A stretch of DNA of 39,939 bases from a virus, in the IMG/VR virus record IMGVR_UViG_3300010885_003709, positions 1-39,939 of that record; one strand, written 5' to 3'. The translations under genes were made by a program, and so were the position numbers. Positions 13,496 to 39,939 of this stretch are shown in pieces (position 1 is the first letter of the stretch; each line of letters begins with the position of its first letter). The notes under the pieces were generated by a model, which was not told the DNA's origin, did no database searches, and worked only from the letters and a program-made list of their open reading frames with translations.

Positions 13496-13530
13496 TATGT
13501 TTTCCTTATGTATTATTAATTAGAAGCTTT

Positions 13531-13562
13531 CTTATATGTCTTTATTGTACAAGACATATAAG
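13531..13562. repeat. 10-bp inverted repeat around a promoter -10 box
   Basis: Perfect arms CTTATATGTC (13531-13540) and GACATATAAG (13553-13562) flank a 12-nt centre that holds the -10 box of the minus-strand promoter. Each arm contains the 9-mer ACATATAAG in opposite orientation. This is an operator-like geometry; a leader hairpin is excluded because the right arm lies upstream of the expected transcript start. Confidence 0.85.
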
Positions 13563-13572
13563 AAGCTGTCAA
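13544..13572 (-). promoter_or_regulatory. Strong sigma70-type promoter for replication operon
   Basis: Minus strand TTGACA (13567-13572), 17-bp spacer, TACAAT (13544-13549). ACATATAAG follows after exactly 4 nt, as in the promoters at 17435 and 33000. It drives the zinc-ribbon, primase-helicase and downstream replication genes. Confidence 0.88.
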
Positions 13573-15649: not shown

Positions 15650-15678
15650 TTTATTCTCCAACAAGGCAGGATTGCCAC

Positions 15679-15705
15679 ATATAAGCCCACTATGTAGGCT
15701 TATAT
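15679..15705. repeat. Inverted repeat in the leader of the GP88-like gene
   Basis: Perfect arms ATATAAGCC (15679-15687) and GGCTTATAT (15697-15705) with a 9-nt loop, located 30-56 bp before the ATG at 15649. As RNA on the minus strand it forms a hairpin. The 9-mer ACATATAAG begins at 15677 on the plus strand. Confidence 0.75.
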
Positions 15706-16060: not shown

Positions 16061-16088
16061 ATTATAGAGAGTCCGGAGGGTTTGTCAA
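16061..16088 (-). promoter_or_regulatory. Consensus sigma70 promoter, leftward
   Basis: Minus strand TTGACA (16083-16088), 16-bp spacer, TATAAT (16061-16066). The -35 box sits in the loop of an inverted repeat CCGGAGG (16073-16079) / CCTCCGG (16091-16097). Transcription would start near 16054 and reach the 81-aa and GP88-like genes. Confidence 0.85.
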
Positions 16089-16108
16089 GTCCTCCGGTTT
16101 GTCCCTCA

Positions 16109-17434: not shown

Positions 17435-17463
17435 TTGACAATTAACATAATCTGTGTTATAAT
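17435..17463 (+). promoter_or_regulatory. Consensus sigma70 promoter for the rightward virion block
   Basis: Perfect TTGACA (17435-17440), 17-bp spacer, perfect TATAAT (17458-17463) with extended TGT. ACATATAAG follows after exactly 4 nt (17468-17476). TAACA-N7-TGTTA forms a weak dyad over the spacer and -10. Confidence 0.92.
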
Positions 17464-17467
17464 AAAT

Positions 17468-17643
17468 ACATATAAGAAATTAAGGAAGCTTATTAAATAA
17501 TTAAATAAGCCTAGACATATAAGTAACTATGTAGTTACTTAGAAGTTAAACAATCTTAGTTGTTTACTTATAAGCTTAACTATTAAAAATAATTCAAACA
17601 TATAAGCTGTACAGAGAGGCATAGAAGCCGCACAGAAGGACTT
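17468..17643 (+). promoter_or_regulatory. Structured 5' leader of the rightward operon
   Basis: About 175 nt of untranslated leader with several potential stem-loops: GCTTATT/AATAAGC (17488-17510), AAGTAACT-ATGT-AGTTACTT (17521-17540), TAAACAA-N6-TTGTTTA (17547-17566) and the palindrome CTTATAAG (17567-17574). The 9-mer ACATATAAG occurs three times (17468, 17515, 17598). GAAGGA precedes the ATG at 17644. This looks like a regulatory leader; the mechanism is unknown. Confidence 0.6.
17521..17540. repeat. Palindrome AAGTAACT-N4-AGTTACTT
   Basis: Perfect 8-bp arms, the longest of the GTAACT/AGTTAC family, overlapping the second ACATATAAG copy in the leader of the rightward operon. Confidence 0.88.
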
Positions 17644-18024
17644 ATGGACATAGATATTCCTGTTAAAAAAAGAGGGCGACCTAAGAAAACAGACCTTGTT
17701 TCCAAAACACCGGGCAAGAGAAATGCTGTTGGAAGACCCAAGGGTGAACAGGCAATCATAAACGAATATCGCTCTAGGATGTTGAACAGCCCCAGAAGTC
17801 AGAAGGTTGTTGAAGCCATCTATGGGGCAGCTTTGGATGATAATCACAAGAATCAAGCAGCAGCTTGGAAGCTCATTATGGATAGACTCTTGCCTCTCAG
17901 TCATTTCGAGAAGGACAAGAATGGCGGTGGTAGGGCTGCTGTATCTATCACTATCACTGGTGTTGGTGGGGAGCAAACCATCATCTCAGGTGGAGAAGCT
18001 GAAGACGTGGAATACAGGGAATAA
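17644..18024 (+). CDS. Putative small terminase subunit with AT-hooks (126 aa)
   Basis: Two AT-hook-like motifs lie in the N-terminus: KKRGRPKK near residue 8 and VGRPKGE near 32, so DNA binding is likely. The helical middle (INEYRSRMLNSPRSQKVVEAIYGAALDDNHKNQAAAWKLIMDRLLP) is followed by a glycine-rich tail ending AEDVEYRE. Size, DNA-binding motifs and location two genes before the large terminase fit a packaging recognition subunit, but no terminase small-subunit signature is diagnostic. It is the first gene after the rightward promoter and its leader. An alternative is a DNA-binding regulator of the late block. Confidence 0.65.
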   Translation: MDIDIPVKKRGRPKKTDLVSKTPGKRNAVGRPKGEQAIINEYRSRMLNSPRSQKVVEAIYGAALDDNHKNQAAAWKLIMDRLLPLSHFEKDKNGGGRAAVSITITGVGGEQTIISGGEAEDVEYRE

Positions 18025-22019: not shown

Positions 22020-24394
22020 ACTTAAAACAAGTTATTCTTTCTGATGCCTCATTACAGGCAAAGGTTTCTGCGCTCGCCATTCTTCTGGATAAAGAACTTC
22101 CTTTGTTAACTGAAAAAGTTAATGAAGTGAAGAAGCTTCAAGGAGAACAAGGAGAGCGTGGTTTAAAGGGTGATGTTGGAGAACAGGGTGTTGCTGGTAA
22201 AGATGGTAAGGATGGTAGAGACGGAAAAGATGGCAAGGATGGCAAGGATGGGCAAGACGGACAGGATGGAGTTTCTGTTGTAGATGCTCGTCTTGAGTTT
22301 GACGGAAGCCTTAGCTTTATTTTTTCCGATGGTAAAGAAATAAATGTTGGTGACATTCTTCCTCAGAATACAGTAGAGAAGTTTCAAGTTATTGCTAGAA
22401 GCGGTGGTGTCTCACAATCTGTAACAGATGCTTTAGTTGATTTACAGAATCAAATAGATGCATTAGGCGGAGGTGGAGGTGGTATTACTTCTGTTACATC
22501 TACTGATGGTTCAGTAGATGTAACTACAACTAGTGGTATAGTAGATTTATCTGTTGCAGTAGCCGCATCTACTACAAATGTTGTGTGTTTAGTTAGAAAT
22601 AACACTGGTGCAACTCTTACTAAAGGCACTGTTGTTTATATCAATGGCACAATTGGTCAAAACCCAACTGTTACTAAAGCCATTGCTACATCAGATACAA
22701 CATCTGCTCAAACATTGGGTGTAATGTCTGCTAATCTGGCTAATAACTCTAATGGTTATGTGACTATTATTGGTTTGGTTACAAACATTGATACATCTGC
22801 ATATACAGATGGTGAACAATTATATTTAAGTGGCACTGTTGCTGGTGGATATACAGCTACAAAACCTCATGCACCTACTCACTTGGTTTATGTAGCCGTT
22901 GTTGAACACGCACACCCGACTCAAGGTAAATTGTTTGTTAAAGTGCAAAATGGCTATGAGATGGATGAGTTGCACAATGTGTCTGCTCAGTCTCCTAGCA
23001 ATGGTGACATTCTTATTTATAATACCAGTACATCCTTGTGGGAAAAGAACACTCCTACCAATGCCAGAACTGCACTGAGTCTTGCTAAAAGTGGTGCAAA
23101 TACAGATTTGACTTCAGTAGCATTAACCACTGGAACAATTACGACTGCACCAAGTTCCAGTAGTGACATTGTCAATAAGTCTTATGCTGATTCAGTTGCT
23201 GCTGGTGTTAACTTTCATGCTGCGGTGCAATATGCAACAACTGCTGCATTGCCAGCAAATACCTACAACAATGGTACTTCTGGAGTTGGTGCAACTCTGA
23301 CTGCTGTAGCTGTTGGAACTTTAACAATTGATGGATATACTTTTGTTATTGGAGATGTTGGTAAAAGAATATTAATTAAGAACGAAGTAACTCAAGCTAA
23401 TAATGGTGTATATACATTAACTCAGGCTGGCACAGCTTTATTACCATATATTTTAACTAGAGCAACTGACTATGACTCAAGCGGCTCAGGCACAAATGAA
23501 GTAGATGAAGGAGATTACATTCTTGTAATCAATGGTACAGTTAATGCTAATACATCATGGGTACAGCAGACACCACTACCAATTACAATTGGGTCAACTT
23601 CTATTGTTTTTATTGAGTTTGCTGCAAGTCAGACATATACTGCTGGCACTGGTTTAACCCTTACAACCAATCAGTTTTCAATTACTAATACAGGAACAGC
23701 AGGAACTTATGGATCGGCATCAACAGTTCCAGTTATTACAACAAATACTAAAGGGCAAATTACATCAGTTACACCTACTAACATAGCTATTAGTGGTAGT
23801 GCTGTCTCTGGTAATATTGCTGGCTCTGCTAACTCGGTGGCTAATGCATTAACGGCTGGTACAGGTATCACCTTTAGTTCTGGTACAACTTATGATGGAT
23901 CATCAGCTATTACAATTAATGCTACAGGTGGAGGATATACACCAAGCATTGATAGACTAACTACCACACAGCAATCAACATCCACTGCGCTGGCAAACGT
24001 CACACAGTTAGTTAAAGCCTTGGTAGCAAATGCCACATACAGAATTGATTGCTTTGTAACCTTCCAATCGGCAGCAACTACCACAGGTTTAAACCTTGGT
24101 TTTACATCTCCTACAGGCTGTGTCTGCTCCGTTGAGGTGGTTGTTCCAATTACCAGTACGGCAGCAGCAACCCAGTTAAGAACCACATTCCCTAACGCAG
24201 CAGCAACCAATACGGGTAACGTCTTGGGTACTGGCGTAACGGCAATTAATAGTAACCACACTGCAAGAATCTCAGGAATTATTACAAATGGAGCAAATGC
24301 TGGTAACTTCCAAGTCCAGTTTGCCACTGAGGTGAACGCTTCTGCAATCACCCTACAAACCTCAAGTGTAATGATTTTAGAAAGAATTGCTTGA
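22016..24394 (+). CDS. Collagen-like tail fibre / virion decoration protein
   Basis: 792 residues. An N-terminal helix (about 1-40) is followed by about 15 Gly-X-Y triplets (residues 43-88, with GKDGKDGRDGKDGKD), which form a collagen-type trimer stalk. After that come Ser/Thr/Gly-rich repeats and beta segments including NKSYADSVAAGVNFHAAVQY and YTFVIGDVGKRILIKNEVTQANNGVYTL, both common in phage fibre proteins. The C-terminal part (about 640-792) looks like a compact beta knob. It lies unusually between portal and scaffold genes. ATG 22016 overlaps the portal stop. Host recognition is likely, but a capsid-surface fibre is also possible. Confidence 0.85.
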   Translation: MNLKQVILSDASLQAKVSALAILLDKELPLLTEKVNEVKKLQGEQGERGLKGDVGEQGVAGKDGKDGRDGKDGKDGKDGQDGQDGVSVVDARLEFDGSLSFIFSDGKEINVGDILPQNTVEKFQVIARSGGVSQSVTDALVDLQNQIDALGGGGGGITSVTSTDGSVDVTTTSGIVDLSVAVAASTTNVVCLVRNNTGATLTKGTVVYINGTIGQNPTVTKAIATSDTTSAQTLGVMSANLANNSNGYVTIIGLVTNIDTSAYTDGEQLYLSGTVAGGYTATKPHAPTHLVYVAVVEHAHPTQGKLFVKVQNGYEMDELHNVSAQSPSNGDILIYNTSTSLWEKNTPTNARTALSLAKSGANTDLTSVALTTGTITTAPSSSSDIVNKSYADSVAAGVNFHAAVQYATTAALPANTYNNGTSGVGATLTAVAVGTLTIDGYTFVIGDVGKRILIKNEVTQANNGVYTLTQAGTALLPYILTRATDYDSSGSGTNEVDEGDYILVINGTVNANTSWVQQTPLPITIGSTSIVFIEFAASQTYTAGTGLTLTTNQFSITNTGTAGTYGSASTVPVITTNTKGQITSVTPTNIAISGSAVSGNIAGSANSVANALTAGTGITFSSGTTYDGSSAITINATGGGYTPSIDRLTTTQQSTSTALANVTQLVKALVANATYRIDCFVTFQSAATTTGLNLGFTSPTGCVCSVEVVVPITSTAAATQLRTTFPNAAATNTGNVLGTGVTAINSNHTARISGIITNGANAGNFQVQFATEVNASAITLQTSSVMILERIA

Positions 24395-24419
24395 CAAATT
24401 AAAACTTTTGTGGTATAAT
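24391..24419 (+). promoter_or_regulatory. Perfect-consensus sigma70 promoter for head genes
   Basis: TTGACA (24391-24396), 17-bp spacer, TATAAT (24414-24419) with extended TGG. The -35 box overlaps the stop of the fibre gene. ACAT begins 4 nt after the -10, as in the ACATATAAG promoters, but the rest of that word differs. It drives scaffold and capsid genes. Confidence 0.92.
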
Positions 24420-24453
24420 AGAGACATCAGCATCCACTATAGGAGAAATGCTA

Positions 24454-32999: not shown

Positions 33000-33028
33000 T
33001 TGACAAAAGTAACAAATTGTGTTACAAT
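33000..33028 (+). promoter_or_regulatory. Strong sigma70-type promoter for tail module
   Basis: TTGACA (33000-33005), 17-bp spacer, TACAAT (33023-33028) with extended TGT; ACATATAAG (33033-33041) follows after exactly 4 nt. A perfect inverted repeat GTAACA-N5-TGTTAC (33009-33025) overlaps the -10. Confidence 0.9.
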
Positions 33029-33049
33029 AGAAACATATAAGGAAAGATT

Positions 33050-38326: not shown

Positions 38327-39939
38327 TGGCAACATTCTTAAGTCCAGAAGAACAAATGATGAGCTCCGTTGGAGCCTCTGGAGTACAGCCGTCTGGTGCT
38401 TTTGATTTAACTGGTGCATTACAAGAGGGCTACACTTTTTCACAAATTGCTGATGAACTAGCAAGACGTAAGGGGTTTAATATTACAGGAGCCAGACAAG
38501 AAGGCTACAAAGATGACCAGATTATCTCTCATTTGATGGGAGAGACAGCCTTCACTGGAGCTATGCAGCGTTTGATTAATGCTGGTGGTAGCAGTATCAA
38601 GGGAGGCTTAGACCTTGTTGGTGGTCTTGATAAAGAGAGAGCTTTAGCTGAACGTACAGCAGCAAGCATTGCCTCTGCTAATGCTCCTATTGCTGGTATG
38701 GTTGGAGAGTTTGCTGGTGCTATTGCTGATCCAATTACAGCTCCTGCCTTTGCTCTTAAAGGCTTGAAGGCTGCAACTCTTGCTGGCACTATGGCTAAAC
38801 AAGGAGCAGCACAGGGAGCCTTTGGTGGTTTCTTAGAGCCTGTCCTTACACCAGAAGAGAGTCGATTGTTTAACACTGTAGCTGGCACTGCTGTTGGCAC
38901 TGTCTTTGGTGCTGGTCTTGGTAAGGCTAGTGAGGGAGTTATTAACTTCCTTGAGAAGAGAGCAATCAAAGCAGCAGGAGAAGACACTGCTAAAGCTGCC
39001 ATTGATGATGTGGCTAAAGCTATTGACAATCCTCCAAGCAAACAAGCAGCAGAGCTACAAGCACAGGCTGTTAATTATGACGTTCCTGCCTACTTACGTA
39101 AAGCTGAAGGAGCACCTCCTCCTGTTGCACGTGAGCTTGACCCTGTACAACTTAAGCTTGTTGAAGAACGCATTGCTAAGACAGAAGCTGAAATTGCTAA
39201 GCATGAATCAGACCTTGCAAATGTACAGAAGCAACAACCAGAGAAAGAAGTGGGAGACTTGCTTGGTTTAAAAGAACCAACCAAAGTTCCAACAGAGAAG
39301 CAAGTGGCTGCTTTGTTCAAAGCTCCAGAAGGACAGAACCTTCCTGCTAAGTTTGGCCTTGTTGCTCCTACACCAGAAGCTCCTGCCAAACAGGTGGCTG
39401 CTTTGTTTAAGAGTGCAACACCAGAAGAAGTTCCTGTTATCAAACAACAGATTGTTGAAGCTGCTAAGCAAGGTACAGCACAGCAATATTTAATCAAACA
39501 AATTGAAACAAAGAAGGCTGAGGTTGAACAGCTCAAAGCTGCTATAGCTCCTCCTACCAAAGAGTTTCCAATACAGGTTGAGACAAGACAAGGAGCCACT
39601 CCACAGCAAGTGGCTGCACGTGATGCTCGTTTGCAACAAGTGATGGAGCGTACAGGCAGGGCAGAACCAATGCCTCAAGAAGCCCCTAGAATGGCTCAGG
39701 AAGCCCCTGTTCAAGGAGCTCCTATACCAACCCCTATGCCAGCTCCTGCTGCCCCTACAAGAGGCTTCCAGAGTGGTGGTGCTGCTGCCACTCCTAGAGA
39801 ACTTCTGTATGCTGAAAGTGTACCATTTCCTACCAATGCAGAGAAGCTGCTCACTGGTGGACAAACACGTGGTGCTAACGTAGAGCCTCCTTCAGCCAAT
39901 GAGCAATGGAATGACTTGTTCTCTAAAGCTATTGGTGTG
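38326..39939 (+). CDS. Internal virion protein C, N-terminal part (continues at base 124)
   Basis: Starts MATFLSPEEQMMSSVGASGV, its ATG overlapping the previous stop. Two copies of an (A)xQEGYxxxQIxxxL motif (about residues 32-43 and 55-66) are followed by an Ala/Gly-rich possibly membrane-active section (ANAPIAGMVGEFAGAIADPITAPAFALKGLKAATLAGTMAKQGAAQG), then a coiled coil and a Pro-rich linker. The frame runs off the end of the window and continues in phase at 124-588, giving about 692 residues in all. Role as an ejection protein is inferred from position and composition. Confidence 0.8.
   Translation, partial: MATFLSPEEQMMSSVGASGVQPSGAFDLTGALQEGYTFSQIADELARRKGFNITGARQEGYKDDQIISHLMGETAFTGAMQRLINAGGSSIKGGLDLVGGLDKERALAERTAASIASANAPIAGMVGEFAGAIADPITAPAFALKGLKAATLAGTMAKQGAAQGAFGGFLEPVLTPEESRLFNTVAGTAVGTVFGAGLGKASEGVINFLEKRAIKAAGEDTAKAAIDDVAKAIDNPPSKQAAELQAQAVNYDVPAYLRKAEGAPPPVARELDPVQLKLVEERIAKTEAEIAKHESDLANVQKQQPEKEVGDLLGLKEPTKVPTEKQVAALFKAPEGQNLPAKFGLVAPTPEAPAKQVAALFKSATPEEVPVIKQQIVEAAKQGTAQQYLIKQIETKKAEVEQLKAAIAPPTKEFPIQVETRQGATPQQVAARDARLQQVMERTGRAEPMPQEAPRMAQEAPVQGAPIPTPMPAPAAPTRGFQSGGAAATPRELLYAESVPFPTNAEKLLTGGQTRGANVEPPSANEQWNDLFSKAIGV
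39817..39939. repeat. 123-bp terminal direct repeat (right copy)
   Basis: Identical to bases 1-123; the circular unique sequence is 1-39816. Confidence 0.95.

What the first reader, a model, noticed from the sequence alone, without database searches (positions are those of the whole stretch)
17435..17476. Three promoters share TTGACA-N17-TATAAT/TACAAT plus ACATATAAG exactly 4 nt after the -10
Promoters at 17435 (+), 33000 (+) and 13572 (-) each have TTGACA, a 17-bp spacer and TATAAT or TACAAT. All three have ACATATAAG starting exactly 4 nt after the -10, that is about -2 to +7 of the transcript. The 9-mer also occurs at 17515, 17598, 15677 and 13554, always in intergenic or leader regions. 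That is seven copies that I located, against well under one expected by chance. A fixed position at the start site implies selection on transcript initiation, the 5' mRNA end or a regulator site. It may be the phage's signal for a co-regulated promoter class.
Basis: seen in the sequence. Interest (0 to 1): 0.8.

Follow-up and report, generated by a model that had tools for sequence, protein, structure and literature searches.

The report
Conserved start-site block on phage promoters
Three of the strongest promoters of an uncultured virus of bacteria carry the same nine letters exactly where transcription should begin, and related viruses keep those letters as strictly as the known promoter boxes; they most likely help the host's RNA polymerase start and leave the promoter, although a regulator-binding site has not been excluded.

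Summary
ACATATAAG occurs 7 times (0.52 expected), all in the roughly 5% of the window that is intergenic. Three copies sit exactly 4 nt after the -10 of TTGACA-N17-TAYAAT promoters: A (13572-, replication operon), B (17435+, packaging/structural operon) and C (33000+, late virion genes). The window is a probably complete uncultured phage genome; no RNA polymerase or sigma factor was found. In close relatives fetched without using the motif, all three promoters recur at the same genes. The 9-mer is nearly invariant (1 deviating cell in 261), against 4/174 for the -10 and 18/116 for the four bases between. The other four copies are no promoter class: 13554 is the other arm of a hairpin at promoter A, 15677 lies in another hairpin, 17515 and 17598 are poorly conserved. 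Promoter D shares only ACAT there; the early promoter E lacks it. Distant relatives keep a TA-rich start region but not the word. Best reading: a lineage-specific start-site and initial-transcribed-sequence block of host-polymerase promoters (0.5). Rivals: regulator site (0.27), RNA-level function (0.15). Follow-up also uncovered a sharper motif, the palindrome GTWACTNNNNAGTWAC (8 exact copies, about 0.03 expected), positionally conserved in relatives.

The parts
13531..13572 (-). Promoter A: TTGACA-N17-TACAAT-N4-ACATATAAG, in front of the leftward replication operon (small gene 13310, primase/helicase, DNA polymerase, exonuclease, ThyX, RNR). Predicted +1 at about 13537
13529..13564 (.). Inverted repeat TTCTTATATGTCTT/AAGACATATAAGAA around the -10 of promoter A; accounts for the copies at 13531 and 13554. 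In read-through RNA from the early operon it folds as a strong hairpin (z -5.1)
17435..17476 (+). Promoter B: TTGACA-N17-TATAAT-N4-ACATATAAG, in front of a ~170-nt leader and the AT-hook (terminase small-like)/terminase/portal operon. Predicted +1 at about 17470
33000..33041 (+). Promoter C: TTGACA-N17-TACAAT-N4-ACATATAAG, overlapping the ribosome-binding site of gene 33050 (tail/virion block). Predicted +1 at about 33035
17515..17523 (+). Extra 9-mer copy in the B leader, abutting the palindrome GTAACTATGTAGTTAC; weakly conserved (relatives have GCATATAAG, GCTTATAAG and others)
17598..17606 (+). Extra 9-mer copy in the B leader; not conserved
15677..15685 (+). Extra 9-mer copy in an intergenic inverted repeat (15679-15705) upstream of the GP88-like gene; one relative (G001) has a copy at the matching distance
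24391..24427 (+). Promoter D: TTGACA-N17-TATAAT-N4-ACAT; shares only ACAT, then a leader hairpin sequence (AGCATCC..GGAGAAATGCT)
16061..16088 (-). Promoter E (early, leftward): TTGACA-N16-TATAAT, no 9-mer; -35 inside a covarying GC-rich inverted repeat

Best explanation
ACATATAAG is the start-site and initial-transcribed-sequence block (about -2 to +7) of three strong promoters read by the host's sigma70-type RNA polymerase. SHOWN: it is at a fixed distance from near-consensus -35/-10 boxes, present at three non-homologous promoters, and constrained in close relatives about as strictly as the -35 box. INFERRED: C(-1)A(+1) fixes the start seven bases below the -10; the TA-rich ATATA stretch eases melting and the first translocation steps; AAG at +5 to +7 helps the polymerase leave these tight promoters instead of recycling abortive RNAs. 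The three transcripts would share the 5' end AUAUAAG. They serve the replication, packaging/structural and late virion genes. Promoter D keeps only the ACAT part because its next bases form a leader RNA hairpin; the early promoter E has its own architecture. The strictness in this lineage suggests that something beyond plain polymerase preference may read the block as well.
For: Fixed spacing and no coding copies. In loci fetched without the motif, deviating cells across 29 haplotypes: 9-mer 1/261, -35 0/174, -10 4/174, spacer 53/493, four bases between -10 and 9-mer 18/116. Three close relatives carry the word at all three promoters; two of them nowhere else. D promoters keep N4-ACAT down to about 45% protein identity. 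Promoters of 60+ deeper lineages are W-only (90-94%) 7-8 nt after the -10 and TA-alternating there; the apparent palindromes come from the central TATA, not from outer arms, which suits melting better than a dimer operator. No sigma factor matched in the genome and no RNA polymerase was found; the genome is probably complete. Precedent: the initial transcribed sequence of the strong T5 N25 promoter changes productive output about tenfold (PMC12464699).
Against: The 9-mer varies less than the -10 box, which is stricter than plain host-polymerase preference should demand. No start site was mapped; the host is unknown.
Confidence: 0.5

Rival explanations
1. Operator: a phage-encoded (or host) DNA-binding protein reads ACATATAAG over the start site and represses or times the replication and late promoters together, leaving the early promoter E untouched.
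For: Exact word at three promoters but not at the early one. At promoter A it is one arm of a conserved inverted repeat around the -10, and promoter B has a shorter one (ATGTRT..AYACAT) with the same centre. Some sister lineages have perfect palindromes at the same spot (GTACTTATAAGTAC, GTACATATATGTAC).
Against: Promoter C has no such dyad (by inspection of the haplotypes). Within sister genomes A, B and C do not share one word. Outer arms of the palindromes are not enriched across the wider group. No HTH or RHH regulator was recognised among the ORFs scanned in PHROGs or Pfam.
Confidence: 0.27
2. RNA-level function: selection acts on the 5' end AUAUAAG of the mRNA (stability, ribosome loading) or on hairpins that contain it.
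For: In C the word runs into the Shine-Dalgarno sequence (ACATATAAGGA), and sister lineages keep ACATATAAGGA at that RBS although their promoter sits ~60 nt upstream. In A it forms a strong hairpin in read-through RNA (z -5.1) whose variable pair 20-33 is C-G, A-U or G-U in all haplotypes.
Against: The transcripts predicted to start at A and C fold no better than shuffles; B is marginal (z -1.75). The three leaders share no structure, and the spacing is fixed to the -10, not to the start codon.
Confidence: 0.15
3. Shared descent without function: the promoters are duplicated cassettes and the 9-mer is a leftover.
For: Three promoter copies in one genome.
Against: Spacers and the four bases next to the 9-mer have diverged while the 9-mer has not.
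Confidence: 0.04
4. Promoters of a phage single-subunit RNA polymerase, with the sigma70 boxes incidental.
For: The start region resembles initiation regions of T7-like promoters in being TA-rich (from memory; a lead only).
Against: No polymerase in the PHROGs scans or the PF00940 search (that search had no ringing control); near-consensus -35/-10 boxes conserved.
Confidence: 0.02

Closest known systems
Phage T5 N25-type early promoters and their initial transcribed sequence (PMC12464699)
   Same: Strong sigma70 promoter of a phage read by host polymerase; sequence downstream of +1 controls promoter escape and output.
   Different: Here one exact 9-mer is shared by three promoters and nearly invariant across relatives; the function is inferred, not measured.
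Cluster A mycobacteriophage stoperators (PMC6550527, PMC9283540)
   Same: Short, asymmetric, repeated sites in a set shared within related genomes.
   Different: Stoperators are 13-bp repressor sites spread across the genome of temperate phages; here close relatives carry the word at three promoters and almost nowhere else, and no repressor was found.
Phage-specific promoters of T7-like phages
   Same: Shared extended consensus reaching past +1 (from general knowledge).
   Different: No phage RNA polymerase found; sigma70 boxes present and conserved.

Membership tests
Host sigma70-type promoter | -35 TTGACA and -10 TATAAT-like boxes at 16-18 nt | tested here: met
   11-12 of 12 matches, spacer 17, conserved in relatives
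Host sigma70-type promoter | RNA 5' end about 7 nt below the -10 | not testable with these tools
   no transcript data
Escape-controlling initial transcribed sequence (T5 N25 kind) | constrained sequence within +1 to +20 | tested here: met
Escape-controlling initial transcribed sequence (T5 N25 kind) | altering it changes productive RNA output | not testable with these tools
   needs in vitro transcription
Phage single-subunit RNAP promoter class | genome encodes the cognate polymerase | tested here: inconclusive
   none in the PHROGs scans of 30 ORFs or the PF00940 six-frame search, but the PF00940 control did not ring; the genome is probably complete
Stoperator-type repressor sites | many copies dispersed over the genome | tested here: not met
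   2-4 copies per close relative, nearly all at promoters
Stoperator-type repressor sites | cognate repressor binds the site | not testable with these tools
   no candidate regulator recognised
Dyad operator of a dimeric repressor | two-fold symmetric site at each regulated promoter | tested here: not met
   present at A, short at B, absent at C; outer arms not enriched group-wide

The most novel reading that the evidence does not exclude
A lineage-specific phage factor reads the -2 to +7 sequence of host-polymerase promoters (a downstream promoter element) and so switches the replication and late operons together without a phage polymerase or sigma factor.
Probability: 0.2. Interest if true: 0.65.

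Novelty: new variant of a known kind. Interest (0 to 1): 0.42.

Why it matters
Phages without their own polymerase or sigma factor must time their genes with host promoters, and how this is done in such uncultured phages is unknown. A block downstream of the -10 that is as constrained as the -35 box gives a testable entry: either initial transcribed sequence is under much stronger selection in nature than assumed, or there is an unrecognised reader of the start site. The architecture (promoters A to E, their hairpins and the GTWACT palindromes) is conserved at the same genes in relatives known only from metagenomes.

Tried and rejected
Dyad operator as a group-wide rule: even-centred palindromes around +1 looked significant (and with column shuffles), but only the central two pairs carry the signal (alternating TA); outer arms do not, so rejected for the wide group. 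Seven independent copies: rejected, 13554 is the other arm of the A hairpin, and close relatives have 2-4 copies. Spacing 4 as a general feature of viral promoters: other phages show a separate cluster at spacing 2; the spacing-4 set is mostly this lineage, and was partly collected by the pattern itself. Phage polymerase or sigma: none found. Known RNA family: no Rfam match. Cultured relatives: only distant ones (DNA polymerase 48%, portal at most about 27%, capsid 28%), too far to compare promoters. Literature on promoters of related groups gave nothing usable.

Full report
WHAT IS THERE. ACATATAAG occurs seven times in the window (0.52 expected). Three copies belong to TTGACA-N17-TAYAAT-N4-ACATATAAG at 13572(-), 17435(+) and 33000(+). 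All seven lie in the 4.7% of the window that is intergenic on a corrected gene map, where 0.06 would be expected. The window is an IMG/VR virus record with an exact 123-bp direct repeat at its ends, so the genome is probably complete. It encodes terminase, portal, capsid and tail proteins to the right, and primase/helicase, DNA polymerase, exonuclease, ThyX and ribonucleotide reductase to the left. Cultured phages are only distantly related.

THE PROMOTERS. Five strong sigma70-type promoters stand out: A 13572(-) before the replication genes, B 17435(+) before the packaging operon, C 33000(+) before gene 33050, D 24391(+) before gene 24448, and E 16088(-) before the early leftward genes ('early', 'late' and the like are inferred from gene content and position). 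A, B and C have the 9-mer. D has N4-ACAT followed by other sequence. E has neither.

RELATIVES. Loci were fetched with neighbouring proteins, not with the motif. In the close family the promoters recur at the same genes. Over 11 A, 7 B and 11 C haplotypes the deviating cells are: -35 0/174, spacer 53/493, -10 4/174, the four bases before the 9-mer 18/116, 9-mer 1/261. Relatives G001-G003 carry the word at all three promoters; G002 and G003 have no other copy, and G001 has one more, at the distance matching 15677. The fixed spacing therefore reflects selection. Outside this family (55-85% protein identity) the same promoters exist, but the start region reads ACATATATGT, ACTTATAAGT, ACATAGTAAG, ACTATAGAGG and so on. 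In still deeper lineages only a TA-rich stretch 7-12 nt after the -10 remains.

THE OTHER COPIES. 13554 is the opposite arm of an inverted repeat that contains promoter A. In read-through RNA this folds into a 17-bp hairpin with z -5.1. In relatives the arms stay pairable, and the variable pair 20-33 is C-G, A-T or G-T in every haplotype. 15677 is in another inverted repeat between two early genes. 17515 and 17598, in the B leader, are replaced in most relatives by similar but different words.

TESTS OF MECHANISM. A dimer operator predicts outer-arm symmetry. Around +1 in 66 diverse promoters only the inner two pairs are enriched; outer arms are not. An inverted repeat with the same centre is long in A, short in B (ATGTRT..AYACAT) and absent in C. 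No recognisable regulator domain was found. No sigma factor matched and no phage polymerase was found; the polymerase search had no ringing control. Predicted 5' transcripts of A and C have no special fold, B is marginal. In bacterial genomes the word shows no preference for spacing 4. The T5 N25 promoter is a measured precedent for control of escape by the initial transcribed sequence, with about tenfold change of output (PMC12464699).

INTERPRETATION. The evidence shows a constrained block from about -2 to +7. That it sets the start and eases escape is inferred from its position, its TA-rich make-up, the deep retention of N4-ACAT in promoter D and of TA-rich start regions elsewhere, and the N25 precedent. 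Its near-invariance, stricter than the -10 box, leaves room for an additional reader; this is the main argument for the operator rival. Counts of haplotypes are not independent events, the B set is small, and spacing statistics in viral contigs are biased because the pattern was used to collect them.

SIDE RESULT. The same genomes carry a 16-bp palindrome GTWACTNNNNAGTWAC, 8 exact copies in the window against about 0.03 expected and almost no one-mismatch copies. Sites recur in the B leader, the large intergenic region, the E leader, just upstream of promoter A, inside the exonuclease gene and between RNR and the virion gene. The third and fourteenth positions are A or T independently, which argues for a DNA-binding protein rather than an RNA hairpin. 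This looks more like a regulatory site class than the 9-mer does.

Noticed in passing
2612, 8015, 13584, 15979, 16685, 16787, 17105, 17523 (16 bp each): Palindrome GTWACTNNNNAGTWAC (centre mostly AGCT): 8 exact copies against about 0.03 expected, hardly any near-misses, positions conserved in relatives (even inside the exonuclease gene). Probably the site of a phage DNA-binding protein; 69 exact sites over 11 genomes examined, none in two of them.
   Followed up: partly
16073-16097: The -35 box of the early promoter E lies in the loop of a GC-rich inverted repeat whose arms covary strongly in relatives (CCGGAGG/CCTCCGG, TCGGAGAGG/CCTCTCCGA, CCTAGGGG/CCCCTAGG); right after the stop codon of the upstream gene, no U-tract.
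   Followed up: partly
24424-24453: Leader of promoter D can form AGCAUCC..GGAGAAAUGCU, pairing the Shine-Dalgarno GGA; relatives have compensatory versions (AACAU/AUGUU, CAUCUCUCC/GGA..GAGAUG, CUGUCC/GGAGAAACAG). No Rfam match; the single-sequence minimum-energy fold of the window differs.
   Followed up: partly
17540-17650 and relatives: B leader holds direct repeats of the kind GCACAGAnnGRCATAGAAGC just before the first gene.
   Followed up: no
L171:3472-3545(-), L209:3781-3854(-): In two relatives a tRNA-Trp gene lies in the B leader; the window has none.
   Followed up: no
1-123 and 39817-39939: Exact 123-bp direct terminal repeat: genome complete or assembly of a circular map.
   Followed up: no
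L222-L290 (several loci): Unrelated-looking viral contigs share TTGACA-N17-TATAAT-N2-ACATATAAG, some apparently orthologous to each other: a second group with the word at another spacing.
   Followed up: no
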